A stretch of DNA of 64,000 bases from Nymphaea colorata (taxonomy: Eukaryota; Streptophyta; Magnoliopsida; Nymphaeales; Nymphaeaceae), in the NCBI RefSeq assembly GCF_008831285.2, contig NC_045142.1, positions 1,929,001 through 1,993,000 on the forward strand. The letters run 5' to 3'. Positions within the stretch are counted from its first letter, which is position 1, and each line of letters opens with the position of its first letter. Shown here one piece after another: positions 19,066-64,000 of the stretch. The notes under the pieces were generated by a model, which was not told the DNA's origin, made no database searches, and saw only the letters and a program-made list of their open reading frames with translations. The position numbers and the translations under genes were made by a program.

Positions 19066-19254
19066 GCTCTGAAAGACAAACATTATTCAGAAGAAGTGCT
19101 TTCTCGCACTCCTCTGCGTCGAATTGGAAAGCCTCGAGAAGTTTCTCCTTTGGTAGCATTCCTCTGCTTACCAGCTGCTTCTTACATTACTGGTCAAGTC
19201 ACTGCAGTCGATGGAGGAATGACAATCAATGGCTTCTTGGCTTTGATGGACTAA
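19066..19254 (+). pseudogene. Orphan last exon of tropinone-reductase-like SDR, copy 1
   Basis: The 189-nt exon has the same length and phase as the last exon of the intact gene at 25518-25706. It reads [20 protein letters not shown], then [20 protein letters not shown] and [10 protein letters not shown], ending LALMD and TAA. It has no stop or frameshift, but the cofactor and catalytic exons are absent, because dispersed repeat sequence lies upstream. The exon plus downstream DNA is duplicated at 54103-54273 and beyond. It is a relic of a second SDR gene rather than part of the intact one. Confidence 0.8.
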
Positions 19255-20808: not shown

Positions 20809-21060
20809 TTAGACTTGGGCGCCCGACCCTGCCTGGTCTGAACCTGAAAAACTCGGTTCGACCAATGACTTTTAATTAATATTTTTTATTATTAGTAATA
20901 TATATTTTATATTTAAAGTTTATTTTATATTTTTAAAAAAATATTTTTTTATTGTAACCAGGTCAATCAGACATGATGCTTAGGCTCGAACTCGAGTTTT
21001 GGATGTCGGACCAACCCAGACCCAGTTCTTAAGGCCAGCCGGCCGAATGCCCACGTTTAA
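20809..21060. mobile_element. Small TIR element H5 (GC/AT mosaic)
   Basis: Terminal inverted repeats TTAGACTTGGGC and (reversed) TTAAACGTGGGC bound 252 bp, flanked by GTTCCTT at 20802-20808 and 21061-21067. The inside alternates GC-rich blocks with TTTTATTATT-type stretches. The same insertion site, AGGTTCCTT, opens a related element at 55791, the one that has expanded into the large tandem array. Confidence 0.7.
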
Positions 21061-21501: not shown

Positions 21502-25706
<4,205 letters not shown>

Positions 25707-34648: not shown

Positions 34649-36254
34649 ATCTCTCGGTAATAGTGGGATATTTTCTGAATCCATCCACTCCTTTTGTTTT
34701 TCAATTGGGTGGTTAGTGGGATATGACTACACGCTCGAATCTGTGAATAGAAAATTTTTGGTGTTTAGATACATTTTTTCAAAAACCTAGTAACATAGAT
34801 GCGATTTTGCTATCTACAAATTGAAATACAAATTTTCATGTATAATTAAGATTTTATAAGCTGAAAAATGTGGGCCGTTTGATTTTAAGTTGGTCATAGC
34901 ATTTTCACGTATGCATTGCAAAAACTTTTTTGTTGGTTGTTAATTAAGTTCTCTAACACGAAAGGACATCTATGCATTTACTTGTATGTAAGACGTTCAT
35001 ATATTATGTTACAGTTTAGTTCCTGAAACATTTTCTTTACTCATCTTATTTGACGGTCTCCTTTTGTTTAACGGTTTGTATATAACCTAATAGATTTGTC
35101 AATGTTGGAGAATTTGGAAGACCTTGAAAACCAAAGGATAAATTTAAGATATATCCAATAAAATGAGGACCTTCCTGGGAAGGTCTCAGGATGCACATCC
35201 GAAATTAGAAACCATGGGCTTACATGTTCTGACAGAGTCAAAAAAGCAAGATCAGAACAGTTTGATAAGTCGATAATCGAAATCTAAATTCCCTTTGATA
35301 CCTATCAACTGAAACAGGCGACGAAGAAAAAGGTAATATTTGCTAAAGAAAACTTAATCGGGCAGCTTTTGACGAATAGGAGAAACGGAGGGGGAGGTAA
35401 ATATTGTGTACCAGCAGAAGTTAACAAGAACCAAAGGTTTCTGTAACCTTTTGATGAAATTAGAAACCTTTGGTTCTTGTTAGCTTCTGCTGGTAGACAA
35501 TATTTACCTCCCCCTCCGTTTCTCCTATTCGTCAAAAGCAGCCCGATTAAGTTTTCTTTAGCAAATATTACCTTTTTCTTGGTCGCTTTTTCAGTTGATA
35601 GGTATCAAAGGGAATTTAGATTTCGATTATCGACTTACCAAACTGTTCTGATCTTGCTTTTTTGACTCTGTCAGAACATGTAAGCCCATGGTTTCTAATT
35701 TCGGATGTGCATCCTGAGATCTTCCCAGGAAGGTCCTCATTTTATTGGATTTATCTTAAATTTATCCTTTGGTTTTCAAGGTCTTCCAAATTCTCCAACA
35801 TTGACAAATCTATTAGGTTATATACAAACCGTTAAACAAAAGGAGACCGTCAAATAAGATGAGTAAAGAAAATGTTTCAGGAACTAAACTGTAACATAAT
35901 ATATGAACGTCTTTCATACAAGTAAATGCATAGATGTCCGTTCGTGTTAGAGAACTTAATTAACAACAAACAAAAAAAAAAATTGCAATGCATACGTGAA
36001 AATGCTATGACCAACTTAAAATCAAACGGCCCAACATTTTTCAGCTTATAAAATCTTAATTATACATGAAAATTTGTATTTCAGTCTGTAGATAGCAAAA
36101 TCGCATCTATCTTACTAGTTTTTTGGAAAAATGTATCTAAACACGAAAAAAATTCTATCACAGATTCGAGCGTAGTCATATCCCACTAACCACCCAATTG
36201 AAAAACAAAAAGAGTGGATGGATTCAGAAAATATCCCACTATTACCAAGAGATA
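34649..36254. mobile_element. Fold-back element F2
   Basis: Arms 34649-35442 and 35462-36254 are nearly perfect inverse copies of about 794 bp with a 19-bp loop. The termini read TATCTCT(C/T)GGTAATAGTG. It disrupts repeat copy C just after CTTTCTC. The right flank does not resume copy C, so a simple insertion with a TSD cannot be shown. No protein is encoded. Confidence 0.85.
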
Positions 36255-40875: not shown

Positions 40876-43800
40876 CTTGTACAATTTCAGCTTCAAGTTA
40901 GTGGGAAAAAAAAAGTGAATTGAACAACAAAAAGGCTCGAGGAATGGGAAAAAAAAATACGAACACTGTTCACTTTACTGTGCGTACTTATGCATGAAGG
41001 TACCTAATGGTAAAAGCACAATCATGATCAAGATCTAGAGAAATCTAGATCTTTATGCTTCTTTACGAATTCATCATATCAATTCAGGACAAAGGAAATG
41101 CAGATGGTGAATTTCAACCAACTAAAGAGGGTGAATCCTAATGAAATGCAAATGATGCAAAATAAAGGCTCAAAAAAGAAGACAAACATATTTACGTGGT
41201 TCCATGGAATGAATCACCTAAGGACGTGAGAAAGGTACTTCCACCATGCCATACCATGTGACAAGCTTCTTCGTAATATAGTAGAGTTTCAACTCAATCC
41301 TCTCCTTTATTTTAAGAGAGTTGGTTACAAGATTTCCATGATGGTCATCAACAAATTTTTTAACATTAGTGTTTGAGATTTTTTTGCTGGATTTATGAGG
41401 CACCCAAGGTCATCAAATTGACTTACCTCTTTCTTGTTGAAAGCATCCATCAACTTCCTCAATTAACGCATGTTTTCTAGGCAACCGACCAACTGAGTAA
41501 TGATTTCATTTTCAATCTGCTAAGCCAACTAAATTTTATTTCTCAATATCTGTTCTTCCCATGATTTCCTTCTCAATCCGTTGAGCCATCTAGATTTTAT
41601 CTCTAAATACCTTTTCAACCAAATATAGTTAGATTCATAAATTGGCTTGGATTATTGGACTTTATATGTTCAAAGAATGTTTTAGACTTCACGATCTCAA
41701 ATGCTTCATAATTAATAGTTTTGGAAATTCATAATTTTCAAAAATGACAAACTTAATTTCCTTAACTACTAGATGGGAGTAGAAATAAGTGGCGAGTTAC
41801 CTACCTCTTGAACGCTATTAATGCAAATGGCAATTTATTATTCTTAACGGAGCACATTAGCTGAGCTTGACGAAGCTAGGGCTGTTGGAGCACAAGTCAA
41901 GCTTGGGTAGCGAAGCTTAAAGTCAATTCACTTTCCTTGACCCAAGAATAGAGCTTCATATTGTTCTGGGCAAAGCTTCGTATGAGTGCTGAACACTTGT
42001 TTATATACAAAAAATTTTGACAGCAAATGATGGCTAACTTGGAAAGATATACTTGCCTCTGTTTTAAAATATGGGATAAAAGAAATGGGAAATGGGACCC
42101 GACCTGTCGATACGAGCTGCAGTTGTTCCTGGTGCCCACACCAGGAGTAACCAAAGCAAGGGTTGAGCAATGCCTAAATATTAACTATGCTTTTCAATAT
42201 AGACCTAGAAATGCCTATATTAATGCATCTTGATTCGAAGTAGGCTTGTTTTAGGAAAATGATGCAATAAGCAAGTAGAAAAACACATGTTTGAAAAACC
42301 CTAATTAGACATTTAGGGTTTTAGAAATACACATAATATTCTTAGGAAAACCCTTTCATCATGGGTTTCATGTGTGCATTCTAAATCTACATGATGTATG
42401 AGTTTCGAAAAGCGATGGCATAAAAATTATGTTTGAGAAGAGACGTAATGATGGTTAAACCTAGACTTTTAAAAAAAATAAAATCAGAGATCAGGCTAAA
42501 GGGGCATGGATGTCCAGTCCTGGTTGAATCACAGTTCTAATCTAGGCATGTTGAAGTTGAGTCTTGCTTCAGAGTTGGATCCATGGTCAATTATTCTTGC
42601 TCCAAAGTTGGATCCATGGTCAATCATGGCAGAGTAAGGTTCGAAACAAAGAGGAAAACTAAACATAAATTTAAAATCTAAATTTAGTAGGAACTTTGAA
42701 ATTCCTTTTGAAAACAAAAGCATTTAAATGAGAAGGAATGCAAGGACAATTCTTGCATCTTAAAGGGGACAACCTAACTAACTAGAGGAAAAATGAAAGT
42801 TTCTCTGGCTTAATGTGGATAATCACGAATCTTCTAAAATTCATTTTTAACTAGAAAATAACATGGCCAAATCTAGGGAAAGGGGATGATCAGTTGATTT
42901 AAAGAGGCTGGTTAGTGGACTCACATCTGACTTAGCTAAAATAAAAGCCTAAATTAGTGGATGACCTAGGATTTTGATGTTTGAATTAATAAAATTTAAC
43001 TAGGAATTTAGAAAACCTTTACTTGCATGCCTCTAAATTTAGAAAATAATGCGTTTCTTGAAGAAATGAAGAGGAGATGAACCTCTTCATGTTGCACCTG
43101 TGGGCAAAAGGCATAAATTAAATTCATCTTTTTTTTTTTGTTGGGAGGTACATTGTGCTTAGCGTTAATGAAAAGTAAAGTGTGTGTATATGCATGAATA
43201 CTATATGATGCATGCCCATTTAATATTGATAGAAATATTTCAATAAAATACAAAGAATATAATTTATGTGGAAAATACAAACAAATGGACATTGGTGTAC
43301 GCTTCATCATATCACATCAATGACATGAAATTGTTGCCAATAGCATCCTATGCTTCATTGAGCCACCAAAAGAAATATGACATGCAATGAAAAATAACTT
43401 GGTTCACAACATCCAATGAAACTCTTTGATTAACATTGTATGTTGCACTAATTCTTTGGTTAACATTGCCGGTTGCACTAACTCTTTTGATTAACGTTGT
43501 CAATTCCCCTGGGGTTTCACTAAAGTGGATTTATTAGAATACTTGTTTTGATGTAAACAGGATAAACAACAATAGAAAAGAGGAGAGGACCCAACTGTTT
43601 AAGTGGAAGTAGGTTTTTGGACCAAAGGTTCATAAATACGGATCCAGTAGAGGGCGACCCATATCTAGCTAGTTCCTGACCCCTTATCTGATGGAATGAA
43701 TGTGTTCCTCCATTTTGATGTAAACACGTCACATAAAGGCCAAGAGGTGGACAACAACGACGGGACCAAGTTGTGAATCGTAGGACCCACCATTCTCAGT

Positions 43801-45117
43801 CTAAGGACTGCTGGAACCACAATAACGGTTCTCAATTCTGTCCACCAAAAAAGGACTGCATTACCCACGGGTCTCAGTCTAAGGACAACATGTCATCAGC
43901 TCCACGCATGTGGTGTGCTGCCTCCTGTGTATGAAGGTAGAGCGTGGCATCAAATTAAAGGTGTACTGACTCTATTTGAAACGTCAACACAATCTTGGAC
44001 CCAAGAAGCATGATAAAAAAGGAAAGCTTTTAACCCTCTTTAAAAAAGAAAGGAAAAGGGTGTAGCTGGTCTGGCTCCCTTCACTACTGGCGGATTCTTT
44101 GTGCTTGCTGCACATGCTAAGGAGATCCACAGGTGTACCTGTTTGCATGTTTTTTTGTGAATTTTCTAAGGGAATCCATGAACATGCAATGAAGGCATGA
44201 GGCAACGCAGCTGATGATGATCAGATGCTCTCTCAAATAGGAGATGCCAGATGTTCTAGTATTATAAGTTTTAAGAAAGAAAAAGCAAATCTTGTTTGCT
44301 TTGTTTTCTTGAGAAAGAAATCCATTATGTTACAATGTGCATCACTAGAAGAGACATGTTTACCATTGCTTAATCTCTTTGATTGTCCCTCACAACCTAA
44401 AGCCTTGTAACCTTCAGGGCTAGTAGCATGTTAACAACCAACTGCCTGAAGAAGACCTGGAGGCCCCTGGTTCTCTCTATGCCTCTGGGGTTCTAGGCCG
44501 GTATATAGTTTACTATATAATTTGAAGCATTATAACCTACCTTCCTTATATATTGAAACAAATTCTAGATTGTCTTCAGCCTTCAAATAAGGAACAGTGC
44601 TTCATGGGTTGTATTATCTTTTGAGGCATCTATGGATGAGAATGTGACAGACCGCTCTCCCTACAATAGCGGCACCACCACGTGCCGCCGAATGCCACCG
44701 TGGACCCACCTGAAAATTTGTGGGTCTATAAGGGGAGAACATTCAAGAGCTCAACACATGTAAAGAATTATCTTTCCATTTTGATATCATCGTATCTAGG
44801 GTTTTGTGTGGATATGTTACATTTGGAAGGTGTTTGATAGGTAGAACATTGTGTTATCGAAACATATATTATTAAAATACATTACTTAAAAACATGATGT
44901 TTTTATTCTCATTATGATTTACTTATTATTGAAATCTAAAATTTATGTATAAATTTTTTAAAAAAATGTTGGTAGGGCCAAGACCCAAGCGGGTCCTACC
45001 TTGGCTCGCCCCTGCTACCATCTCTACTTTTAACTCCATGACAACGAATGGGTCAACATCTTGGTCTGGATCCGACCTAATCCAAATCTCTTTGTCAATG
45101 ATGAGACATCCATGCAA
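40876..45117 (-). repeat. Dispersed repeat family, copy D
   Basis: Inverse partner of copy C, extending further on one side (40876-41230 corresponds to copy A 3870-4230). Preserved pieces include the KKLVTWYGMVEVPFS frame near 41220-41400. The boundary near 45117 corresponds to the C boundary at 30808, which supports one ancestral element edge at this point. Confidence 0.75.
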
Positions 45118-46001
45118 TAATTAAACTTGAGTCATTGCATTGCATGCAAGCAGCAAGGGTAGGGATAGAAATTTTTCGTTGCAAAGATCAAGCTATACTT
45201 TTAAAATTTTAACAAAGACTAAAATTATAACTTTTCAAAAAATGGCTTATGCTGCTTCCCCTTGCCAGAGTAGAGCCTGCAAGGGCCCTGCCCTCACTTC
45301 AAAAAAAAAAGTTAACTTGTAAATTTTAAAAAAATTTACTTGGCTTATATAATTTTTTTTAAAAATGATATTTCAGTCCATATCAAAATTTAGAAACTTT
45401 AATTCTGCATCCTCATGAAAAAATTCTGCTCCTGCACCTTTACATGCACGCGTAGGGTTGGGTGTCAAATAAGAAGTTTTTTGTCTCATCTAAGCCACAA
45501 ACATCCGAGCAAGCCGAAGCAGGCATAGGCCTTAAGGATGGGGTTCTAACTAGGGTTGAAACCAAGGTAGGGGGCATGCTTGGGTCATGGCCCTACTTTT
45601 AAAAAAAAGTTTTAAAAAAAAGTACATGTAAATTTTAAAAAAAATTCACTTGTATACAAAAATTTTGATAAACGATATTTCTGTTCCAGTGAAAATTTGG
45701 GAACTTTAATTCAATCTGCGTCATAAAAATTTTCTAGCTTTGCCCCTCGTTCTAATACCCTCAAAATTTTCAGGCCCAAATGCAATATCTTCGAGTTTAG
45801 AACTAAAAGAAAGGGAAAAGAATAATAATGGGTGCTGGATTATACCAGATCATGGCTGGTCTTGTGTTACTGTTGCACATAGAAAACCATCGCCTAGGTC
45901 TAAACCAAGCAAACAGGTCAGTCCGACTCTCTGATGACAACCCTCGAAAGGCCAATTGGACCCTTTTCAAAGAACATCAGTCCTATTCATAAGCCGATCT
46001 T
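45118..46001. other. Unassigned DNA with degenerate repeats
   Basis: Several GTAGGGCC/GGCCCTAC-like short motifs recur (near 45000, 45280, 45590), each next to A/T-rich runs with a FTC-like low-complexity context. They look like decayed small elements. No gene. Confidence 0.35.
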
Positions 46002-49000
46002 CCTTGCTCTTCCTTTTTTTAAATTGTAAATTGTGAACAGTGAAGATAGGAAGAAGGAAATGTGTGCCAATAAGCAAGAGGGGAGAAGAAAAAGGGGCCG
46101 GAAATGGACTTCTTAGTTCTTTCTCTCCCTCTATCTCTGCGCGTGTCAATTGTCCCCAACGCTGCCAAGTCCAACACCCAGGGACACCAATGTCTTGGGA
46201 AAAACCGATGGAAAGAAAACCCCACGATATCTGTTTCCTCCTTTCTAATCCGGCAGGAACAATGTGCAAGAGAGGGAGAGTGTCTCTCTTGAAAAGTAAA
46301 AGGCCCGTAATAAAAGGGCAGGGAATTTCACGGGAGAGGATCCTAGCCGTTGATCAGGGACCGCAGGAACAGAAAAGGAACGGTGGCAAGAACTCTGGAA
46401 CGGATTAAAAAGGATCCGTGGCCTGCCTATCAGCAGCTAACTTCTCTGCGTTTTCGCCTCGGGCAAATCCCTCTCCCTCTGTGCCCAGAGGACACCAGCG
46501 CTCTGAAACGATTCTTGGTTCCTGTGCCACGGCCGCCGGTTAATATACTCCCGTTCCTCTTACCCGCTAACAGTAAACAAGTAAGAAAATAAATCATGTA
46601 TATGAGGATTTGTTTTCGTCCGGAGAAGAACGACCAAGCTTCCATGAAACGAAATTGGCATCTTCCTTTGAAATCAGAGCTGCCCAAGAGGAAATGTGGC
46701 GCAGTTCAGGCGCAGCAGTGTAAAACATAAAAGAACTGTCAGAAAGAAGCGGTAGGGTTGGGAGGAGGGAAACTCTTCCGGGTGCTCCCGAATGACTGCC
46801 TGGAACTTCTCGACATAGGGGAATTGTTTAATAAATTCTTACATTGGTGTCCCTGATGAAAGAGGAGATGTAACATACCTCCTCTTTCAAATGCCTGTTC
46901 TTCCAATCTCCTAATAACGTTAATTACATATATGATTTCGCTGAGGCTATTAGAGATATCAATAAGACCAATCTTCTCTATGCTACAGCATGTGAGAGGA
47001 ATATATGCTACAGCTCTTTCATGTTTTGTTTCTTCTCCTTCAAAAGTTAATGAAACAGAACGACAAAACTTATTCAAAAGTAGCCGAGGAACCCTATGAA
47101 TATTCTATTAGATGTATAAAGTTGAGAAAAAGTACCATTCATGAGTCACTGTGAGGCACAGTGTAAGGTCACGCCCACACGAGAGACTGTGCGCTGCAGC
47201 TCGGTCAGATCCAACATGATCATGTGTTGATCAACAAGAAACGGACACCCATTTGAGAAAAGCCACTAATTCATCCACCAAACTCAGAAACAAGCAAAAA
47301 AAAAAAGGAATCAAAACTGGTTTCCATCCACAAAAATGGCAAGAGGAACGATCTGAGGGCAAAAAATAAACACCTCGCTGAGATATCGTTTGTGGGAATG
47401 AAAATTATCCAGATAGACAGGATCTTCAGGGTGTCTACTCCTCTTCCCGCTCGATTCCGACCCCATCATTCTTCTACCTCATGAACACTTGACAGATAGG
47501 ACAGACGAAGGAGAAGCACACACACCCCAACACTCACTTTCTGCCCCAAACATCACAAGGAAGAAAGGCATTTTTGTCAAACCCAAGAGAGGAAAACAAT
47601 AAGACAATCATTCTTCTATTCTCTTTCTTTTTCCACCCAATTTCATATTCGTTTCTCATCATTCCTCAGTAGACGCTGGTTCACGTCCCCATTGACAATG
47701 TCCTTAAAAAGTTAGAGAGAAGCGTGACAAGACGACCACGCAGACGCACCTCCCAACTGTAGGCAGCCGGTCAGTAATTACCCTTTCATGGATCATTATC
47801 ACACAGCCACCCTTTGATCACTTCGTTAGTCAGGCATAATCTAGAGATTAATCCAATGGGGTCTCTCTTTCTATATGAATTTTTAAATATATAAATTGAG
47901 TATATATAAATAAGTTAATTTATGAATCGTCAAATCTCTAGATTATGCCTGACTAACGAAGTGATCAAAGGGTGGCTGTGTGATAATGATCCATGAAAGG
48001 GTAATTACTGACCGGCTGCCTAAAATTGGGAGGTGCGTCTGCGTGGTCGTCTTGTCACGCTTCTCTCTAACTTTTTAAGGACATTGTCAATGGGGACGTG
48101 AACCAGCGTCTACTGAGGAATGATGAGAAACGAATATGAAATTGAGTGGAAAAAGAAAGAGAATAGAAGAATGATTGTTTTATTGTTTTCCTCTCTTGGG
48201 TTTGACAAAAATGCCTTTCTTCGCTGTGATGTTTGGGGCAGAAAGTGAGTGTTGGGGTGTGTGTGCTTCTCCTTTGTCTGTCCTATCTGTCGAGTGTTCA
48301 TGAGGTAGAAGAATGATGGGGTTGGAATTGAGCGGGAAGAGGAGTAGAGACCCTGAAGATCCTGTCTATCTGGATAATTTTCATTCCCACAAACGATATC
48401 TCAGCGACGTGTTTATTTTTTTCCTTCAGATTGTTCCTCTTGCCAGTTCTGTGGATGGAAACCAATTTTGGTTCCTTTCTGTGGATGGAAACCAATTTTG
48501 GTTCCTTTTTTTCTCCTTGTTTCTGAGTTTGGATGAATTAGTGGCTTTTCTCAAATGGGTGTCCGTTTCTTGTTGATAAATACATGACCATGTTAGATCT
48601 GACCGAGCTGCAGCGCACACTCTCTCGTCTGGGCTTGACGTTACACTGTGCCTCACCGTGTGACTCATCAACGGTACTTTTTCTCAACTTTATACATCTA
48701 GTAGGAATATTTATAGGGTTCCTCGGCTACTTTTGAATAAGTTTTGTCGTTCTGTTTCATTAACTTTTGAAGTAGAAGAAACAAAACATGGAAGAGCTGT
48801 AGCATATATTCCTCTCACATGCTGTAGCATAGAGAAGATTGGTCTTATTGATATCTCTAATAACCTCAGCAAATCATGTATGTAATTAATGTTATTAGGA
48901 GATTGAAAGAACAGGCATTTGAAAGAGGAGATGTAAACACATCTCCTCTTTCATCAGGGACACCAATGTAAGAATTTATTAAACAATTCCCCTATGTCGA

Positions 49001-49793
49001 GAAGTTCCAGGCAGTCATTCGGGAGCACCCGGAAAAGTTTCCCTCCTCCCAACTCTACCGCTTCTTTCGGACAGTTCTTTTTTACACTGCTGCGCCTGAA
49101 CTGCGCCACATTTCCTCTTGGGCAGCTCTGATTTCAAAGGAAGATGCCAATTTCGTTTCATGGAAGCTTGGTCGTTCTTCTCCGGACGAAAACAGATCCT
49201 CATATGCATGATTTATTTTCTTACTTGTTAACTGTTAGCGGGTAAGAGGAACCGGACTATGTTAACCGGCGGCCGTGGCACAGGAACCAAGAGTCGTTTC
49301 AGAGCTCTGGTGTCCTCTGGGCACAGAGGGAGAGGGATTTGCCCGAGGCGAAAACGCAGAGAAGTTAGCTGCTGATAGGATAGGCCACAGATCCTGTTCC
49401 CGTGTCCTTGCCACCGTTCCTTTTCTGTTCCTGCGGTCCCTGATCAACGGCTAGTATCCTCTCCCGTGAAATTCCTGCCCTTTATTACGAACCTTTTACT
49501 TTTCAACAGGGAAAGACACTCTCCCTCTCTTGCACATTGCTGCTGCCGGATTAGAAAGGAGGAAAAGAAATCGTGGGGTTTTCTTTCCCGTCAACAACAT
49601 CGGTTTTTCCCAAGACATTGGCGTCCCTGGGTGTTGGACGTGGCTGTTGTTGGCAGCGATGCGGACGAGATAGAGGGAGAGAAAGAAGTCTGTTTCCGGC
49701 CCCTTTTACTTCTTCCCTCCTGCTTATTGGCACGCATTCCTTGTTCCTCTCTTCACTGTTCACAATTTACAATTTAAAAAAAGGAAGGGCAAG
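46002..49793. mobile_element. Fold-back element F3 (3.8-kb hairpin)
   Basis: Left arm 46002-47849 (1848 bp) and right arm 47933-49793 (1861 bp) are inverse copies around an 83-bp AT-rich loop. Landmarks on both arms include AAATTGTAAATTGTGAAC near the ends and CATAATCTAGAGATT/AATCTCTAGATTATG at the centre. Arms differ by scattered substitutions and small indels, for example a 30-bp unit doubled in the right arm only. Open frames in the arms (such as 46040-46408) have no recognised domain and their inverse counterparts are broken. No transposase. Confidence 0.88.
48449..48508 (+). repeat. 30-bp tandem duplication in right arm of F3
   Basis: Unit CTGTGGATGGAAACCAATTT and ten further bases occurs twice (48449-48478 and 48479-48508). 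The left arm has it once, near 47315-47340, so the duplication post-dates the hairpin. Confidence 0.85.
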
Positions 49794-50939
49794 GCATAGG
49801 GCTCCACCAGTCAGTCTCAATTCGAAAGAAGGGCTTTTCCATGCTAGACGACGGATATCGGCTTATGAATAAGAAAAAAATGGCCACAAGTCGATATCGG
49901 CTTTTGGTCGCTAGACCACGGATATCTGTTTGTGAATAAGAAAAAATGGTTACAAGCCGATATCGGGTTTTCCCCGATTTTGGTGGCCCACACATATAGC
50001 AGGACCTCTAATAAAATTCTTGAGGGCAGCTCACACGTAGCTCTCTTACTGTTTTAGGGAATGTAATTGACCACTTTATTAATATGATGTAGGTGATGTT
50101 GGCAAGTGGTTTCGAGCTTTTGGATTTGGATTTGAAAAGTTTCTGATGCTCCAATGTTAAGAAACTTTTTTCTTATTCATATCTTTTCCCCGCTAGACCA
50201 CGGATATCGGCTTTTCCCCACTAAACCACGGACATAGGCTTGCATTCATTGCTTGTGGGTGATTTTTGTTGTGGTCTTCCTTGGAGGAGTAAGTATGTGT
50301 CCCACAGTGAGATGACTCCAAATTTGGAACATAGAAAATTGTAAAAAAAATATATAGAAATGAAATTTTATGAGCTCAGAAAATTGCCAGTTATAATTAT
50401 GAAAAACCGATGTCACTATTCGAATTTGGATTCGGGCGATTGAATCAGTTAATCCAAATCTCATTGTATTGGATTCCGAGACCCAAAAAAATGTTTATGC
50501 AATATTGAGGTACTGCCCGGGTGAGAGGCTAAGATCCTCTTCGTTTTCTATTGTCTTTGGAGTTTTAAGCTGCAAAGAATTCTCTCTCTCTACATTGCCT
50601 GTAAATTGCACACATCACTGCTTTACTTACTACTACCATTGTTTCTCAAACTAAAAGCACTTCACCTGGCCTGCCATCTATCCATTTGTTATCATGCAAT
50701 GCAGCGTAAACAACATGGACAGAACAGTATGTGAATAGAGGTTTAGGAGCTGCCCTGAAGCCATTGCCACCAAAGAGAATACAGGTGAAGGAAGCCATCT
50801 AGAACAAATTTAAGGAAGTTGTTTCCAACACAGTTAGTCATTATGAAAAGGTTGCAACACAGAGTTCCAATTCCCCACTTAAAACGTAAAAGGTTTCAGA
50901 TGATGCAGATGGGAAAGGAAGATGGAAGCAGCATTGGAT
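49794..50939. other. Fold-back-family flank and unassigned DNA
   Basis: About 49840-50260 contains four or more copies of a CCACGGATATCGGCTT-like motif and sequence matching the outer part of F1 (GTTGGCAAGTGGTTTCGAGC). About 50420-50490 matches 21300-21380 inversely. The remainder to 50939 shows no supported gene. Confidence 0.5.
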
Positions 50940-53900
50940 ATTTTAGTTAGACATTATTTTCTACAAACTTAGTCTTCCTCTCTGGACTCTTGTAACTATG
51001 AAAGTTTCGGTTGTAGACCCACCAAAGAATATGAGCAAATCTTTTTTCCCAAAATTTCTTTTCCAAGTTCTTGTAGAAAGGCAGTCATACTATAGTTTGT
51101 ATAATGTTGAAAATGGAACCGACCAGATAACACAACCCAGTGGCTTATGTACTCTGAGTTGTTTCCGTCTATAATATCTTTAGTTGATTGGCTGGATATG
51201 TCATTCCACTTCAACAAGATACTTTATATATCTTAAACTCAATCATGGAGATGCAAATTGCAGGAGAAGAGCTCCCAGTAGTGATTGAATATTTTTTCCT
51301 GAAACTTGTGCTTAATATTAATACTTGCAAATGTACTTTCCTCTTGGTCTTAAGTCTCAAGTACATATGGATCTTGCTCTTGCTTATCAGCATATGCCTC
51401 AAAAATGATCACATAAGCATAAACCAATATTGCCAAGCAGCAACTAGATCCAAAATTTCATCAGCATGTACAATTTCAGCTTCAAGTTATTCAGAAAAAA
51501 GAAAAAGTGAATTGAACAACAAAAACCCTCGAGCAATGGGAAAGAATACACAAAGACTGAAATATTTGACCGCTTTATTGTGTGTACTTATGCATGAAGG
51601 CGGCTAATGGTAAGAGCACCATCATGATCAAGATTTCAAGAAATCTAAATGCTCTATGCTTTTTTACGAATTCATCATATCAATTCATGACAAATGAAAT
51701 GCAGATGGTGAATCCCAACCAACTACAGAGAATGAATCTTCATGAAATGCAAATGATGTAAACTAAAGCATAAAAAAGAGAAGACAAACATATTTAAGTG
51801 GTTCCATGGATCGAATCACCTAAGGACATGAGAAAGGTACTTCCTCCATGCCATACCATGTGACAAGCTTCTTCTTAATATAGTGGAGTGCCAACTCAAT
51901 CCTCTTCCTTATTTTTGGAGAGCTGGTTACAAGATTTCTATGATGGTCATCAACAAATTTTTTAACATTAGTATTTGAGATTTTTTTGCTGGATTTATCA
52001 GCACTCCAAGGTCATGAGATTGACTTGCCTCTTTCTTGTTAAAAATATCCATCAGCTTCCTCAATTAATGTATGTTTTCTAGGCAACATGACCGACTCAA
52101 TAATGATTTCATTTGCAATCTATTGAGCCAACAAGAGTTTATCTCTCAATATCTTTTCTTCCCATGATTTCCTTCTCAATCTGATGAGCCATCCGGATTG
52201 CATCTTTGAATACCTTTTCAACCAAATTTAGTTAGATTCATAGATTGACTTGGATTATTGGACTTTATATGTTCAAAGAATGTTTTAGACTTCACAATCT
52301 CAAATGCTTCATAATTAACAGTTTTAGAAATTCACAATTTTCAAAAATGACAAACTTAATTTCTTGAATTGCTAGATGTGAGCAGAAATAAGTGGGGCGT
52401 TACCTAGCTCTTGAATGCTATTAATGTAAATCACAATTTACTATTATTAATAGAGCACATTAGCTGAGCTTGAAGGAGATAGGGCTGTTGGAGCACAAGT
52501 CAAGCTTGGGTAGCCAAGCATGAACTCAACTCACCATCTTTGACCTAAGAATAGAGCTTCAGATTGTTTTGGGTAGAGCTTCATCTGAGTAATGAACACT
52601 TGTTTATATATGAAAACTTTTGGCAACAAACCATGGCTAACTTGGAAAGATATACTTGCATCTGTTTTAAAATATGGGATAAAAGAGATGCGAAATGGGA
52701 CCTGACCTGTCAGTACGAGCTTCGGCTGTTCCTGGTGCCCTCATCGGGAGTAACCAAAGCAAGGGTTGAGCAATGCCTAAATATTGACTATGTGTTTCAA
52801 CATAGACCTAGAATGCCTATATGAATTCATGTTGGGTTGAAATAGGCTTGTTTTTAGAAAATGATGCAATAAGCAAAGATAAACACATGATTGGAAAACC
52901 CTAAGTAGACCTTTAGGGTTTTAGAAATACACATAATATTCTTAGGAAAACCCTTTCATCATGGGGTCCATGTGTGTATCCTAAATCTACCTGATACATG
53001 AGTTTCGAAAAGCGATGTCATAAAAAATATGTTTGAAAAGAGATGTAAAGATGGTTTATCCTAGATTTTATTAGAAATAAAGTCTAGGATCAGGCTAAAG
53101 GGGCATTGATGTTCAGTCCTAATTGGAACACGGTTCTGATCTAGGCATGTTGAAGTTGAGTCTTGCTTCAGAGTTGGATACAAAATCAATTCTGAGGGTC
53201 AACTTTAGCAAGGTAAGGTTCGAAACGAAAAGGAAAACCAATCATAAATTTAAAATCTAAATTTAGTAGGAACTTTGAAATTCATTTTGAAAACAAAGGT
53301 ATTTAAATGATAAGGAATGCAAGAACATTTCTTGCATCTTAAAGGGGACAACCTAACTAATTAGAGGAAAAATGAAAGTTTCTCTGGCTTAAAGTGGATA
53401 ATGAGGGAATCTTTGAAAAAACATTTTTAAGTAGAAAATAACATGGCCAAATCTAGGGAAAGTGGATGATCAATTGACTTAAAGCGGCCGGTTAGTGGAC
53501 TCACATCCTACTGAGCTAAAATAAAAACCTAGATTGGGGGATGACCTAGCATTTTGATGTTTGAATGAATAAAATTTAACTAGGAATTTAGAAAACCCTA
53601 ACTTGCATGCCTCAAAATTTTGAAAATAATGTGTTTCTTGGAGAAATTAAGAGGAGATGAACCTCTTCATGTTGCACCTGTAGGCAAAAGACATAAAACG
53701 TTCTGTGTTATATGCTACTTCATTTACAAGATCATAACAAAGGTGATGGTGAATAGAATGCAACCCGACCCACAAACTATCAGCTAATCAAGCTTCTTTC
53801 TTGAAGGGCAGGAACATGAAAGAAAGATTGAATTCATCTTTCTTGATTTTTGTTGGGATGTGCATTTTGCTTTGTATGCATGGCAAGTAACATGTGTGTA

Positions 53901-54095
53901 TATGCATGAATACTACATGGTGGATGCCATTTAATATAGATAGAAATATTTCAATGAAATACAAAGAATATAATTTATATGGAAAATGTGAAAATATAAA
54001 CAAATGGACATTGGTGTACGCTTCCTCATATCAGTTCAATGACATGAAGTTGTTGCCAATAGCGTCTTATGCTTTATTGAGTCACCAAAAAAATA
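50940..54095 (-). repeat. Dispersed repeat family, copy E
   Basis: Reverse copy aligning with copy A 1815-4770. The 50940-51480 part matches copy A 4240-4760, showing that the family extends to that end. It stops abruptly at 54095 where SDR exon sequence begins. A minus-strand frame 50996-51217 (starts MLKWNDISSQSTKDI) is better preserved than its copy A counterpart but has no recognised domain. Confidence 0.75.
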
Positions 54096-54102
54096 CGAAG
54101 AG

Positions 54103-55790: not shown

Positions 55791-55969
55791 TCTCGACCTG
55801 GGTGTCCGGTCGGGCCGTCGACAGTACCTAGTACCTAGCCCGGTATGGGTCCGAGTTGGAGAACCCGAGTTCGGCCACGATCGAGCAGGCTCGGATCGGC
55901 TCGACAGGGGCCCGATCTGACCAGATAAATTTCAAATAATATTTTTTATTATCAATAATTTATATTTTA
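55791..55969 (+). mobile_element. Left end of the GC/AT mosaic element hosting the tandem array
   Basis: Begins CTCGACCTGGGTGTCCGG directly after AGGTTCCTT, the position at which H5 begins in the duplicated locus (20809). It therefore derives from the same insertion, diverged. The tandem array starts inside it at about 55970; its right end lies beyond the window. Confidence 0.6.
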
Positions 55970-56458
55970 TTACTTAAAATATATTTTATATTTAAAAATT
56001 TATTCTATATTTTAAAAATAATTTTTTATTGTAACCGGGTCAAGCTAGGCTAGGACCGAGTTTCAGGAACCCAAGCTATTTGTGGGCGCCGGGCCAGGCC
56101 GCTGGCGGGGGGCCGATACCTGGCCCGTGACGGGCCCAGCTTGGCAATGTTAAAAAAGCATTTTTTATTATTTTTAAAATTTAAAAATATATATTTTATT
56201 TTTTAAAATATAATTTATATTTAAAAATTTATTTTATAATATAAAAAAAATTATTGTAACCAGGCCGGCCCGGCCTGGTGCCCACTCCTGGCCCGAGTTC
56301 GAGTTTCGGACATCGGGCATGCCGGATCCAGTTCTTACGGTGCCAAGCAGGCCGATGCCCTTCCTTCCGCTCAGTGGCGGAGCGGGGCCACTTGTACGAG
56401 AAGGAAAAGTAAAAATAAAATAAAATGTCACTATGTAAATGAAGCAAATTTAAAAGGA

Positions 56459-56902
56459 TTGAAGGTCAGGAAGACCGGGAAAGCGCGGACATACCGTGCC
56501 CTGTTTGCCGCGGACATCCCTGACCACGCAGAGCACGAGGAGCCAGAGGAACCACCAGCGAATCGCCCCGCTAATATCCCGACTGCCCCAACTCAACCGG
56601 AGAAGACCTTCCTTGAGACACTCGAGGAAGAAATGCGGCAGGCAGACCAAATCTACCAAGGGAGCCGATGGGAGATGGATGTCCCCCTGACTCCGGAACC
56701 CGAGCCACTACCTTGGATAGAGGACCTAGCCCAGGTGGCCGTAGAGGAGCTCGCCCGCATACAAGATACAGAGCCCCAAGAGGAAAGACCGATACTGGCG
56801 GTCTTGCGGGAACAATGGAGGACCTCCATTGCTTTCGACGTCGACCCACCCCCACCGGAAGAAGAGCATAAGGTCAACCAAACCTACCAACAGGACCCCT
56901 GA
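56459..56902 (+). pseudogene. Array unit 1 open frame, shortened
   Basis: Frame starts at TTG, not ATG, reading KVRKTGKARTYRALFAADIP, with central LEEEMRQADQIYQGSRWEMD. A missing G in CAACAGGACCCC (others have CAACAGGGACCCC) near 56892 ends it early. No domain recognised; acidic and proline-rich. Confidence 0.6.
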
Positions 56903-57898
56903 AGGTATTCCTACCCGGGAAGGATTGGCTCGTCTCCTCCTCAGAATGGGGACGAATAGATCGAACCAGGAGATGATCATGGGCTTGGCCTGACGCAATG
57001 ATTGAAAGAAATAACTCTCCGAGGTCCGAATATAAAATTCCATATGACCAAAGCAACGAGCAAATACCATTCATGGGAAGATTTTGGCAAGAGTTATCAT
57101 TGTGCCAAAATATGAATATCCGGATACGTTCATAAGAAGGAACACAAGACATGTATCTAATTGACGTTATTTTATCAAAAAAGTTAATTTTTTCTATAGT
57201 TAAAATCTTGTTATAAGAGCTGTTCATTTTTTTATTATTATAAAACATCATTAAACTCAAAAGATAAATAACTTAGTATATGGTTTCCCTCAAATTGTTT
57301 TAGCATCCAATCTAATGGCAATTTAACGGGTCCGATTAGTCAATTTGTGGGTATTGTGGGATCCAGTAAATTTGCTTCATTTACATAGTGACATTTTATT
57401 TTATTTTATTACTTAAAATATATTTTATATTTAAAAATTTATTCTATATTTTAAAAATAATTTTTTATTGTAATCGGGTCAAGCTGGGCTACGCCCGAGT
57501 TTCTGGAACCCAAGCTATTTGTGGGCGCCGGGCCAGGCCGCCGGCGGGGGGCCGATACCTGGCCCGTGATGGCCCGAGCTTGGCAATGTTAAAAAAACTT
57601 TTTTTATTATTTTTAAAATTTAAAAATATATATTTTATTTTTTAAAATATAATTTATATTTCAAAATTTATTTTATTATATAAAAAAAAATTATTGAAAC
57701 CAGGCCGGCCCGGCCTGGTGCCCACTCCTGGCCCGAGTTCGAGTTTCGGACATCGGGCATGCCGGATCCAGTTCTTACGGTGCCAAGCAGGCCGATGCCC
57801 TTCCTTACGCTTACTGGCGGAGCGGGGCCACTTGTACGTGAAGGAAAAGTAAAAATAAAATAAAATGTCACTATGTAAATGAAGCAAATTTAGAAGGA

Positions 57899-58417
57899 TT
57901 GAAGGTCAGGAAGACCGCGAAAGCGCGGACATACCGTGCCCTCTTTGCCGCGGACATCCCTGACCACGCAGAGCACGAGGAGCCAAAGGAACCACCAGCG
58001 GATCCCCCCGCTAATATCCCGACTGCCCCAACTCAACCGGAGAAGACCTTCCTTGAGACACTCGAGGAAGAAATGCGGCAGGCAGACCAAATCTACCAAG
58101 GGAGCCGATGGGAGATGGATGTCCCCCTGACTCCGGAACCCGAGCCACTACCTTGGATAGAGGACCTAGCCCAGGTGGCCGTACAGGAGCTCGCCGGCAT
58201 ACAAGACACAGAGCCCCAAGAGGAAGGACCGATACTGGTGGTCTTGCGGGAACAATGGAGGACCTCCATTGCTTTCGACGTCGACCCACCCCCACCGGAA
58301 GAAGAGCATAAGGTCAACCAAACCTACCAACAGGGACCCCTGAAGGTATTCCTACCCGGGAAGGATTGGCTCGTCTCCTCCTCAGAATGGGGACAAATAG
58401 ATCGAACCTGGAGATGA
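57899..58417 (+). pseudogene. Array unit 2 open frame, full length (172 codons)
   Basis: Longest form of the repeated frame, ending PGKDWLVSSSEWGQIDRTWR and TGA. It has no ATG start in frame near the beginning, no splice structure and no known domain. Compared with unit 5, 13 codons change the amino acid and only 2 are silent, so there is no sign of selection to keep the protein. Probably a fossil coding piece, perhaps from a retrotransposon, amplified passively. Confidence 0.6.
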
Positions 58418-59340
58418 TCATGGGCTTGGCCTGACGCAATGATTGAAAGAAATAACTCTCCGAGGTCCGAATATAAAATTCCATATGACCAAAGCAACGA
58501 GCAAATATCATTCATGAGAAGATTTTGGCAAGAGTTGTCCTTGTGCCAAAACATGAATATCCTGATACGTTCATAAGAAGGAACACTAGACATGTATCTA
58601 ATTGACGTTATTTTATGAAAAAAGTTAATTTTTTCTATAGTTAAAATCTTGTTATAAGAGCTGTTCATTTTTTTATTATTATAAAACATCATTAAACTCA
58701 AAAGATAAATAACTTAGTATATGGTTTCCCTCAAATTGTTTTAGCATCCTAGGCTAATGACAATTTAACGGGTCCGATTAGTTAATTTGTGGGTATTGTG
58801 GGATCCAGTAAATTTGCTTCATTTACATAGTGACATTTTATTTTATTTTATTACTTAAAATATATTTTATATTTAAAAATGTATTCTATATTTTAAAAAT
58901 AATTTTTTACTGTAACCGGGTCAAGCTGGGCTAGGCCCGAGTTTCAGGAACCCAAGCTATTTGTGGGCGCCGGGCCAGGCCACCGGCGAGGGGCCGATAC
59001 CTGGCCCGTGACGGCCCGAGCTTCGCAATGTTAAAGAAGCATTTTTTATTATTTTTAAAATTTAAAAATATATATTTTATTTTTTAAAATATAATTTATA
59101 TTTAAAAATTTATTTTATTATATAAAAAAAATTTATTGTAACCAGGCCGGCCCGGCCTGGTGCCCACTCCTGGCCCGAGTTCGAGTTTCGGACATCGGGC
59201 ATGCCGGATCCAGTTCTTACGGTGCCAAGCAGGCCGATGCCCTTCCTTCCGCTCAGTGGCGGAGCGGGGCCACTTGTACGTGAAGGAAAAGTAAAAATAA
59301 AATAAAATGCCACTATGTAAATAAAGCAAATTTAGATGGA

Positions 59341-59858
59341 TTGAAGGTCAGGAAGACCAGGAAAGCGCAGACATACCGTGCCCTCTTTGCCGCGGACATC
59401 CCTGACCACGCAGAGCACGAGGAGCCAGAGGAACCACCAGCGGATCATCCCGCTAATATCCCGACTGCCCCAACTCAAACGGAGAAGACCTTCCTTGAGA
59501 CACTCGAGGAAGAAATGCGGCAGGCAGACCAAATCTACCAAAGGAGCCGATGGGAGATGAATGTCCCCTGACTCCGGAACCCGAGCCACTACCTTGGATA
59601 GAGGACCTAGCCCAGGTGGCCGTACTGGAGCTCGCCCGCATACAAGACACAGAGCCCCAAGAGGAAGGTCCGATACTGGCGGTCTTGCGGGAACAATGGA
59701 GGACCTCCATTGCTTTCGACGTCGACCCACCCCCACAGGAAGAAGAGCATAAGGTCAACCAAACCTACCAACAGGGACCCCTGAAGGTATTCCTACTCGG
59801 GAAGGATTGGCTCGTCTTCTCCTCAGAATGGGGACGAATAGATCGAACCAGGAGATGA
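59341..59858 (+). pseudogene. Array unit 3 open frame, frameshifted
   Basis: A missing C in GATGTCCCCTGAC (others GATGTCCCCCTGAC) near 59563 breaks the frame, giving two overlapping pieces 59341-59571 and 59550-59858. Confidence 0.6.
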
Positions 59859-60794
59859 TCATGGGCTTGGCCTGACGCAATGATTGAAAGAAATAACTCT
59901 CCGAGGTCCGAATATAAAATTCCATATGACCAAAGCAACGAGCAAATACCATTCATGGGAAGATTTTGGCAAGAGTTGTCCTTGTGCCAAAATATGAATA
60001 TCCTGATACGTTCACAAGAAGGAACACAAGACATGTATCTAATTGATGTTATTTTATGAAAAAAGTTAATTTTTTCTATAGTTAAAATTTTGTTATAAGA
60101 GCTGCTCATTTTTCTATTATTATAAAACATCATTAAACTCAAAAGATAAATAACTTAGTATATGGTTTCCCTCAAATTGTTTTAGCATTCTAGGCTAATG
60201 ACAATTTATGATCAATTTAACGGGTCTGATTAGTCAATTTGTGGGTATTGTGGGATCCAGTAAATTAGCTTCATTTACATAGTGACATTTTATTATAATT
60301 TATTACTTAAAATATATTTTATATTTAAAAATTTATTTTATATTTTAAAAATAATTTTTTATTGTAACCGGGTCAAGCTGGGGTAGGCCCGAGTTTCAGG
60401 AACCCAAGCTATTTGTGGGCGCCGGGCCAGGCCGCCGGCGGGGGGCCGATACCTGGACCGTGACGGCCCGAGCTTCGCAATGTTAAAAAAGCATTTTTTA
60501 TTATTTTTAAAATTTAAAAATATATATTTTATTTTTTAAAATATAATTTATATTTAAAAATTTATTTTATAATATAAAAAAAAATTTTATGGTAACCAGG
60601 CTGGCCAGGCCTGGTGCCCACTCCTGGCCCGAGTTCGAGTTTCGGACATCGGGCACGCCGGATCCAGTTCTTACAGTGCCAAGCAGGCCGATGCCCTTCC
60701 TTCCGCTCAGTGGCGGAGCGGGGCCACTTGTACGTGAAGGAACAGTAAAAATAAAATAAAATGTCACTATGTAAATGAAGCAAATTTAGAATGA

Positions 60795-61286
60795 TTGAAG
60801 GTCAGGAAGACCGGGAAAGCGCGGACATACCGTGCCCTCTTTGCCGCGGACATTCCTGACCACGCAGAGCACGAGGAGCCAGAGGAACCACCAGCGGATC
60901 CCCCCGCTAATATCCCGACTGCCCCAACTCAACCGGAGAAGACCTTCCTTGAGACACAAGAGGAAGAAATGCGGCAGGCAGACCAAATCTACCAAGGGAG
61001 CCGATGGGAGATGGATGTCCCCCTGACTCCGGAACCCGAGCCACTACTTTGGATAGAGGACCTAGCCCAGGTGGCCGTACAGGAGCTCGCCCGTATACAA
61101 GACAAAGAGCCCCAAGAGGAAGGACCGATACTGGCGGTCTTGCGGGAACAATGGAGGACCTCCATTGCTTTCGACGTCGACCCACCCCCACCGAAAGAAG
61201 AGCATAAGGTCAACCAAACCTACCAACAGGGACCCCTGAAGGTATTCCTACCCGGGAAGGATTGGCTCGTCTCCTCCTCAGAATGA
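60795..61286 (+). pseudogene. Array unit 4 open frame, premature stop
   Basis: The tryptophan codon in SSSEW is TGA (61284-61286), truncating the frame by nine codons. The unit also carries AQ-like changes in the ETL-EEE region (ETQEEEM). Confidence 0.6.
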
Positions 61287-62224
61287 GGACGAATAGATCG
61301 AACCAGGAGATGATCATGGGCTTGGCCTGACGCAATGATTGAAAGAAATAACTCTCCGAGGTCCGAATATAAAATTCCATATGACCAAAGCAACGAGCAA
61401 ATACCATTCATGGGAAGATTTTGGCAAGAGCTGTCCTTGTGCCAAAATAATACGTTCATAAGAAGGAACACAAGACATGTATCTAATTGACGTTATTTTA
61501 TGAAAAAAGTTAATTTTTTCTATAGTTAAAATCTTGTTATAAGAGCTGTTTATTTTTTTATTATTATAAAACATCATTAAACTCAAAAGACAAATAACTT
61601 AGTATATGGTTTCCCTCAAATTGTTTTAGCATGTTAGGCTAATGACAATTTAACGGGTCCGATTAGTCAATTTGTGGGTATTGTCGGATCCAGAAAATTT
61701 GCTTCATTTACATAGTGACATTTTATTTTATTTTATTACTTAAAATATATTTTATATTTAAAAATTTATTCTATATTTTAAAAATAATTTTTTATTGTAA
61801 CCGGGTCAAGCTGGGCTAGGCCCGAGTTTCAGGAACCCAAGCTATTTGTGGGCGCCGGGCCAGGCCGCCGGCGGGGGGCCGATACCTGGCCCGTGAGGGC
61901 CCGAGCTTGGCAATGTTAAAAAAGCATTTTTTATTATTTTTATATTTTAAAAATATATATTTTATTTTTTAAAATATAATTTATATTTAAAAATTTATTT
62001 TATAATATAAAAAAAATTATTGTAACCAGGCCGGCCCAGCCTGGTGCCCATTCCTGGCCCGTGTTCGAGGTTCGAACATCGGGCATGCCGGATCGAGTTC
62101 TTACGGTGCCAAGCAGGCCGATGCCCTTCCTTCCGCTCAGTGGCGAAGCGGGGCCACTTGTACGTAAAGGAAAAGTAAAAATAAAATAAAATGTCACTAT
62201 GTAAATGAAGCAAATTTAGAAGGA

Positions 62225-62743
62225 TTGAAGGTCAGGAAGACCGGGAAAGCGTGGACATACCGTGCCCTCTTTGCCGCGGACATCCCTGACCACGCAGAGC
62301 ACGAGGAGCCAGAGGAACCACCAGCGGATCCCCCCGCTAATATCCCGACTGCCCCAACTCAACCGGAGAAGACCTTCCTTGAGACACTCGAGGAAGAATT
62401 GCGGCAGGCAGACCAAATCTACCAAGGGAGCCGATGGGAGATGGATGTCCCCCTGACTCCGGAACCCGAGCCACTACCTTGGATAGAGGACCTAGCGCAG
62501 GTGGCCGTACAGGAGCTCGCCCGCATACAAGACACAGAGCCCCAAGAGGAAGGACCGATACTGGCAGTCTTGCGGAAACAATGGAGGACCTCCGTTGCTT
62601 TTGACTTCGACCCACCCCCACCGGAAGAAGAGCATAAGGTCAACCAAACCTACCAACAGGGACCCCGGAACGTATTCCTACCCGGGAAGGATTGGCTCGT
62701 CTCCTCCTCAGAATGGGGACGAATAGATCGAACCAGGAGATGA
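62225..62743 (+). pseudogene. Array unit 5 open frame, full length (172 codons)
   Basis: Same length as the unit 2 frame, with 13 replacement and 2 silent codon differences. Begins at TTG and ends EWGRIDRTRR then TGA. Confidence 0.6.
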
Positions 62744-63661
62744 TCATGGGCCTGGCCTGACGCAATGATTGAAAGAAATAACTCTCCGAGGTCCGAATAT
62801 AAAATTCCATATGACCAAAGCAACGAGCAAATACCATTCATGGGAAGATTTTAGCAAGAGCTGTCCTTGTGCCAAAATATGAATATCCGGATACGTTCAT
62901 AAGAAGGAACACAAGACATGTATCTAATTGACGTTATTTTATGAAAAAAGTTAATTTTTTCTATAGTTAAAATCTTGTTATAAGAGCTGTTCATTTTTTT
63001 ATTATTATAAAACATCATTAAACTCAAAAGATAAATAACTTAGTATATGGTTTCCCTCAAATTGTTTTAGCATCCTAGGCTAATGACAATTTGACGGTTC
63101 CGATTAGTCAATTTGTGGGTATTGTGGGATCCAGTAAATTTGCTTCATTTACATAGTGACATTTTATTTTATTACTTAAAATATATTTTATATTTAAAAA
63201 TTTATTCTATATTTTAAAAATAATTTTTTATTGTAACCGGGTCAAGCTGGGCTAGGCCCGAGTTTCAGGAACCCAAGCTATTTGTGGGCGCCGGGCCAGG
63301 CCGCCGGCGGGGGGCCGATACCTGGCCCGTGACGGCCCGAGCTTCGCAATGTTAAAAGAGCATTTTTTATTATTTTTAAAATTTAAAAATATATATTTTA
63401 TTTTTTTAAATATAATTTATATTTAAAAATTTATTTTATAATATAAAAAAACATTATTGTAACCAGGCCGGCCCAGCGTGGTGCCCATTCCTGGCCCGAG
63501 TTCGAGGTTCGGACATCGGGCATGCCGGATCCAATTCTTATGGTGCCAAGCAGGCCGATGCCCTTCCTTCCGCTCAGTGGCGAAGCGGGGCCACTTGTAC
63601 GTGAAGGAAAAGTAAAAATAAAATAAAATGTCACTATGTAAATGAAGCAAATTTAGAAGCA

Positions 63662-64000
63662 TTGAAGGTCAGGAAGACCGGGAAAGCGCGGACATACCGT
63701 GCCCTCTTTGCCGCGGACATCCCTGACCACGCAGAGCACGAGTTGCCAAAGGAACCACCAGCGGATCCCCCTGCTAATATCCCGACTGCCCCAACTCAAC
63801 CGGAGAAGACCTTCCTTGAGACACTCGAGGAAGAAATGCGGCAGGCAGACCAAATCTACCAAGGGAGCCGATGGGAGATGGATGTCCCCCTGACTCCGGA
63901 ACCCGAGCCACTACCTTGGATAGAGGACCTAGCGCAGGTGGCCGTACAGGAGCTCGCCCGCATACAAGACACAGAGCCCCAAGAGGAAGGACCGATACTG
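63662..64000 (+). pseudogene. Array unit 6 open frame, cut by window end
   Basis: Open to the last base of the window. It has HELPKEPP in place of HEEPEEPP. Whether it is complete cannot be seen. Confidence 0.5.

What the first reader, a model, noticed from the sequence alone, without database searches (positions are those of the whole stretch)
55970..64000. Young tandem array of 1.44-kb units built from a TIR cassette nested in a hAT-like element
The array joins two kinds of parts: the GC/AT mosaic of a small TIR element and a 990-bp cassette with its own 37-bp inverted repeats and a GC-rich open frame. The same insertion site at 20801 holds a simple 252-bp element, so the array arose in one copy of a duplicated locus after the cassette entered it. 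This is an unusual origin for a satellite.
Basis: partly seen in the sequence, partly recalled or inferred. Interest (0 to 1): 0.72.

Follow-up and report, generated by a model that had tools for sequence, protein, structure and literature searches.

The report
Tandem-amplified gene-capturing hAT transposon
A small jumping gene that had picked up a piece of a plant gene landed beside an older transposon remnant, and the pair was copied head-to-tail into seven units, mostly within a short time: a well-resolved example of a known way in which repeats are born rather than a new kind of element.

Summary
The array is real. Seven head-to-tail units (six of 1433-1452 bp, the last 1465 bp) run from window 55967 to C5:1995072, 2072 bp past the window; capped genome searches found no second locus. 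Each unit is about 405 bp of GC/AT-mosaic MITE plus a non-autonomous hAT cassette. The cassette's inverted repeats are 81 bp (78 of 81 match), not 37. Only unit 7 has a complete right end; the six junctions between units cut the right repeat after about 41 bp and join it to the mosaic's AT tract through a 6-bp microhomology. An 8-bp target duplication (7 of 8) brackets unit 1's left end and unit 7's right end. The 'GC-rich open frame' is a 487-bp gene fragment, 92% identical to C5:3646232, where the repeats are absent: a Pack-hAT-like capture. The units are nearly star-like (126 single-unit, 18 shared variants), so most copies arose together and were then little homogenised; the frame decays without detectable selection. 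The cassette abuts the mosaic rather than nesting in it. It is a small transposon-derived tandem array, not a satellite.

The parts
55967..64000 (+). Tandem array, units 1-6 (unit 6 cut by the window end); array continues through unit 7 to C5:1995072
55793..56359 (.). GC/AT-mosaic MITE (possibly two overlapping ones) of which the part from about 55967 is in every unit
   Evidence: ends read by eye; family matches; TIR/TSD only at 2 of 12 other loci
55967..57405 (+). unit 1 (1439 bp): 405 bp mosaic part + 1034 bp cassette part
57406..58847 (+). unit 2 (1442 bp)
58848..60299 (+). unit 3 (1452 bp)
60300..61732 (+). unit 4 (1433 bp)
61733..63168 (+). unit 5 (1436 bp)
63169..64000 (+). unit 6 (1439 bp, first 832 bp inside the window)
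56364..56371 (.). left target-site duplication CTTCCGCT of the cassette; right copy CTTCCACT at C5:1995073-1995080
56372..56452 (+). left terminal inverted repeat of the cassette, 81 bp, unit 1; left ends of units 2-6 begin at 57812, 59254, 60708, 62138, 63575
57366..57406 (+). truncated right inverted repeat (about 41 bp) and founding junction into the mosaic AT tract, unit 1/2; the same form at the five other junctions
56461..56946 (+). captured gene fragment in unit 1, about 487 bp, 92% identical to C5:3646232-3646718
20810..21059 (.). mosaic MITE at the paralogous, cassette-free site
   Evidence: ends read by eye
21903..22343 (+). short-chain dehydrogenase (SDR) exon region beside the paralogous site

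Best explanation
A non-autonomous hAT element with Tip100-type ends, carrying a 487-bp gene fragment whose source lies 1.66 Mb away on the same chromosome, inserted at the right edge of an older GC/AT-mosaic MITE in one copy of a duplicated short-chain-dehydrogenase locus (shown by TSD, inverted repeats, source without the repeats, and a cassette-free paralogous site). One founding rearrangement joined the middle of its right inverted repeat to an AT tract 405 bp upstream of its left end through 6 bp of shared A/T sequence, giving a direct tandem duplication (junction shown; end joining or template switching inferred). The duplication grew within a short time to about five units (inferred from the near-star tree; several quick rounds of unequal exchange fit best, one rolling replication also fits), and later exchange or conversion among the right-hand units related units 5, 6 and 7. 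Since then the units have drifted without detectable selection on the open frame. It has no evident host function.
For: 81-bp repeats, 78 of 81, and 8-bp TSD, 7 of 8. Tip100-type element with CAGGGGCGGAG ends, exact 8-bp TSD, DUF4371 and Dimer_Tnp_hAT in this genome; cassette end matches 10 of 11. Source locus 92% over 487 bp without the repeats. Cassette-free paralogous site. Same junction at 6 of 6 internal boundaries. 126 single-unit against 18 shared variants; inner branches 0-0.0054, end branches 0.011-0.021. 37 of 46 single-unit changes in the frame nonsynonymous, 74% expected, P 0.40; frame indels in units 1, 3, 7.
Against: TSD has one mismatch of 8, cassette end one of 11 against Tip100. 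No second complete copy of the cassette was found, so its own mobility is inferred; the C11 relative has a right end only. Six bp of A/T microhomology is weak evidence by itself (2.6% of random breakpoint pairs there share as much). The tree is not a perfect star: (5,6) and (5,6,7) are supported. The mosaic's own ends could not be confirmed at this site.
Confidence: 0.8

Rival explanations
1. Transposase-driven amplification: a failed or alternative hAT transposition during replication re-replicated the element and its flank (as for maize Ac/fAc), giving most of the array in one event, bounded by the original ends and TSD.
For: Near-star history; breakpoint inside the right inverted repeat; maize hAT events give element-plus-flank duplications with 3-4 bp microhomology or none (PMC4270019, passages); a second Tip100-type direct duplication joins a right end to a (TA)n tract.
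Against: Maize events need two nearby sets of ends and gave no seven-copy arrays in the passages read. Only 2 close same-strand pairs among 40 scored right ends of a Tip100-type family, so any effect is rare. A near-star tree also fits fast unequal exchange.
Confidence: 0.12
2. A 1.44-kb circle formed from element plus flank, replicated as a rolling circle and recombined back into the locus as a multimer.
For: Explains near-simultaneous copies and identical junctions; rolling circles are named as a route for transposon clusters (Bari1) in PMC9659126 section 8.
Against: No direct trace; the later (5,6,7) grouping needs extra steps. Sequence alone cannot separate it from fast unequal exchange.
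Confidence: 0.06
3. A selected tandem gene family: the 191-aa frame is a working gene multiplied for dosage.
For: Units 2, 5 and 6 keep a 191-aa frame and unit 4 a 163-aa frame.
Against: Units 1, 3 and 7 are broken by indels and 2 single changes make stops; nonsynonymous share as expected without selection; no Pfam domain above cut-off.
Confidence: 0.01
4. A long-standing satellite that happens to reach this locus.
For: Head-to-tail organisation.
Against: One locus found, seven units, TSD and complete outer ends still in place, little homogenisation.
Confidence: 0.01

Closest known systems
Pack-hAT (Pack-TYPE) elements of plants (PMC8903248, passages read)
   Same: hAT-type ends with 8-bp TSD, no transposase, internal fragment of a host gene
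   Different: That work describes dispersed clusters of elements; here one complete-ended insertion was found, and it is amplified in tandem with its flank
Tip100 of morning glory (PMC12511174, passages read)
   Same: End CAGTGGCGGAG against CAGGGGCGGAG (10 of 11), 8-bp TSD
   Different: Tip100 is autonomous with 11-bp repeats; the cassette has 81-bp repeats and no transposase
Transposon-derived tandem repeats and emerging satellites, e.g. Tetris/TIR-220 of Drosophila virilis (PMC4079207, passages; review PMC9659126)
   Same: Tandem array built from an inverted-repeat transposon
   Different: TIR-220 grew from repeats already inside the element and became kilobase arrays; here the unit is element plus flank, seven copies, one locus
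Maize Ac/fAc tandem direct duplications and composite insertions (PMC4270019, passages; PMC3744419, listing only)
   Same: hAT-linked direct duplication of element plus flank, microhomology at some junctions
   Different: Maize duplications are 8 kb to 5.3 Mb, made by two sets of ends; here seven short copies around one element

Membership tests
hAT superfamily, Tip100 type (cassette) | 8-bp target-site duplication | tested here: met
   CTTCCGCT / CTTCCACT, 7 of 8
hAT superfamily, Tip100 type (cassette) | terminal inverted repeats of the Tip100 kind | tested here: met
   81 bp, 78 of 81; first 11 bases 10 of 11 to CAGGGGCGGAG
hAT superfamily, Tip100 type (cassette) | mobilised by a hAT transposase | not testable with these tools
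   Tip100-type element with DUF4371 and Dimer_Tnp_hAT exists in the genome; no assay possible
Pack-TYPE (Pack-hAT) | host-gene fragment between the ends, source locus without the ends | tested here: met
   487 bp at 92%, source locus in a 241-aa frame, no such repeat in the 6-kb locus
Pack-TYPE (Pack-hAT) | no transposase of its own | tested here: met
   three frames scanned, no Pfam family above cut-off
Pack-TYPE (Pack-hAT) | more than one dispersed copy | tested here: not met
   no second complete-ended copy in the capped searches; C11 relative has a right end only. I therefore call it Pack-hAT-like
hAT-type MITE (GC/AT mosaic) | TAGGGGTG-like inverted repeats with 8-bp TSD | tested here: inconclusive
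   met at 2 of 12 fetched family loci (L035, L038); not confirmed at the window's own sites, whose ends were read by eye
Satellite DNA | head-to-tail tandem units | tested here: met
Satellite DNA | long arrays at several loci | tested here: not met
   seven units, one locus found; assembly collapse not testable
Satellite DNA | homogenised units (concerted evolution) | tested here: not met
   near-star tree; only 5-6-7 show shared history

The most novel reading that the evidence does not exclude
hAT elements of the Tip100 type can seed multi-copy tandem arrays in one event: breakage or re-replication at a right end, rejoined by short A/T homology to an upstream AT tract, then rolled out into several copies at once. 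The array would be a frozen one-burst product, and as a whole it is a 9.7-kb hAT-bounded element with seven left ends and one right end that could move as nested elements of different length. The Tip100-type duplication on C11 (right end joined to a (TA)n tract, 99.98%) would be a fresh example.
Probability: 0.12. Interest if true: 0.55.

Novelty: new member of a known kind. Interest (0 to 1): 0.3.

Why it matters
The steps from single insertion to small tandem array are still legible here: source gene, capture, insertion site, founding junction, burst and decay. In mature satellites such early stages are usually lost (general knowledge). It also shows gene-fragment copies multiplying without selection, which can mislead gene annotation. 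If the novel reading held, hAT right ends would be a defined starting point for new tandem repeats, and that could be tested genome-wide.

Tried and rejected
Considered and rejected: (a) satellite (one locus found, seven units, little homogenisation). (b) Gene family under selection. (c) Cassette inside the mosaic (it begins at 56372, beyond the mosaic's right edge). Left open: (d) an inner MITE within the array-site mosaic: candidate ends 56077-56290 match at 12 of 18 (repeat) and 5 of 8 (TSD). (e) A left end for the C11 relative was sought in L011 and L019: no hit near the right end's score (70 against 36 or less elsewhere). (f) The dispersed pieces matching the right half (29 of 41 rows) look like an old MITE family; in the 7 of 29 fetched the cassette's inverted repeat scored at most 42, against 70 for the C11 right end. 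(g) Is tandem growth typical of Tip100-type elements here? Two same-strand pairs within 12 kb among 40 scored right ends (213 candidates). One was examined (L043), the other (C13) not. L046 has a 92% direct repeat that leaves the right-end region single.

Limits: no reads and no relative's genome, so copy number in the plant, age and polymorphism are untested. With a recalled rate of 7e-9 per site and year, a median end branch of 0.016 would be about 2.3 million years; the rate comes from no call.
Full report
Observation. The window lies at C5:1929001-1993000 of a 408-Mb, 783-contig genome. From 55960 to its end it repeats itself every 1.44 kb at 95-96% identity. With the next 7 kb the array has seven units, starting at window 55967, 57406, 58848, 60300, 61733, 63169 and C5:1993608, and ending at C5:1995072.

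Anatomy. Unit 1 has 405 bp of GC/AT mosaic and then 1034 bp of cassette. The cassette starts CAGTGGCGGAGC at 56372. Its complete right end occurs once, at L009:2472, and pairs with the left end over 81 bp, 78 matching. CTTCCGCT precedes unit 1's cassette and CTTCCACT follows unit 7's: an 8-bp TSD with one difference. In units 1-6 the right repeat stops after about 41 bp and passes into the mosaic's AT tract (41 bp measured at unit 6/7). The letters shared at the junction are TATTTT, by comparing the sequences. Random breakpoint pairs in these two stretches share 6 bp or more in 2.6% of cases. Six of six internal junctions have the same form, with base changes at 3/4 and a 5-bp shortening at 5/6.

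Origin of the cassette. Its left half, 487 bp, matches C5:3646232-3646718 at 92%. There it lies in a 241-aa frame, and the 6-kb locus has no inverted repeat like the cassette's (best score 29 against 70 for the C11 right end). That protein has no Pfam match at E 0.1. Two copies, 72% identical in DNA, lie at C5:19.25 Mb, and a related stretch on C2. The right half matches C11:19954701-19955179 at 78%, including most of the right repeat; no left end was found there. About 150 bp of that half also match an old dispersed family (29 of 41 rows; 7 of the 29 fetched).

Family. A Tip100-type element with exact ends exists in this genome: L044 1367-5521, CAGGGGCGGAG at both ends, TSD CCTATAAG twice, with a 712-aa frame that has DUF4371 and Dimer_Tnp_hAT. 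Of three transposase loci examined that way, only this one gave ends with a matching TSD. The Tip100 end sequence comes from a passage of PMC12511174. The cassette's end is 10 of 11. A search for its first 20 bases (two free positions, up to 2 mismatches) gave 31 sites, 8 of them in the array, against 2 for the reversed control.

Site. Left and right flanks align to window 19072-20825 and 21297-24022. The paralogous site has mosaic MITE sequence but no cassette. Joining the array's two flanks gives a cassette-free site whose flanks align well and whose mosaic part aligns ambiguously. The gene beside both is a short-chain dehydrogenase (Pfam adh_short). The alignment of the array-side copy skips 21418-22575, where the paralogue has an upstream exon, so that copy may be incomplete.

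History of the units. In ungapped columns 126 variants are private to one unit, 18 are shared by two or three, 5 are multi-state. Mean pairwise divergence is 3.5%, range 2.3-4.3%; neighbours are barely closer than non-neighbours (3.3% and 3.6%). The tree has end branches of 0.011-0.021 and inner branches of 0 to 0.0054; only (5,6) and (5,6,7) are well supported. Simulated coalescent or pure-birth trees of seven tips reach an external share of 0.875 in 5 and 11 of 20,000 runs; this treats variant counts as branch length and is rough. Mosaic and cassette parts agree in shape: 46 private to 6 shared, and 80 to 12. So most units separated at nearly the same time, with later exchange or duplication at the right end.

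Selection. Source against array majority: 17 nonsynonymous and 13 synonymous changes (74% nonsynonymous expected, P 0.035). Within the array, 37 and 9 of 46 single-unit changes (P 0.40), with 5 and 3 more shared; 2 changes make stops. Units 1, 3 and 7 carry indels in the frame. C-to-T and G-to-A make up 50 of 126 single-unit changes, 14 of the 50 at CG, no more than a mild CG excess (14 of 130 CG sites, 9 of 118 CHG, 27 of 387 CHH).

Mechanism. Shown: insertion, capture, founding junction, near-star history. Inferred: microhomology-mediated joining, and how the copies multiplied. PMC9659126 (section 8 read) lists microhomology joining between sister chromatids, non-allelic recombination and rolling circles as routes to transposon tandem repeats. 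Maize hAT re-replication (PMC4270019, passages) is a possible driver. A second case was met by chance: in L043 a Tip100-type element is duplicated head-to-tail, period 4417 bp, 99.98% over 4423 bp, joining the outer right end to an internal (TA)n tract. Such identity may also be an assembly effect. Among 40 scored right ends only two close same-strand pairs were seen, so this is rare.

Literature. The listings (15 of 235 shown; 18 of 19; 10 of 11; 8; 2; 6) showed no title or abstract on a tandem array built from a Pack-hAT with its flank. The library is partial and I read passages only. The class is known, so I call this a new member of a known kind.

Noticed in passing
L043, C11:14441500-14451499: Tip100-type hAT with an 834-aa DUF4371 frame in each of two head-to-tail copies, period 4417 bp, 99.98% identical; junction joins the outer right end to an internal (TA)n tract.
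   Followed up: partly
L012, C5:19246500-19254500, continuing to about C5:19255440: Direct tandem repeat of about 3.4 kb, 89% identical, that carries relatives of the captured gene fragment and a weak FHA match (E 0.0016, under the cut-off).
   Followed up: partly
L046, C10:11762000-11770500: hAT transposase region with a 2.0-kb direct repeat, 92%, at an offset of 3094 bp.
   Followed up: partly
G000 C13:3321125-3321616 and 3332888-3333379: Two Tip100-type right ends in the same orientation 11.8 kb apart with equal scores, perhaps a segmental duplication.
   Followed up: no
L011, C11:19952500-19957500: Right end of a cassette relative without a left end, directly upstream of a gene with two Stress-antifung (DUF26) domains.
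   Followed up: partly
window 46002-49794, 34644-36258 and 14166-15899: Large near-palindromes: each stretch matches its own reverse complement at 90%, 95% and 83%.
   Followed up: no
window 1754-4758, 17244-18583, 30801-34646, 40878-45118, 50930-54098: Several copies of one repeated segment, 85-90% identical and in both orientations.
   Followed up: no
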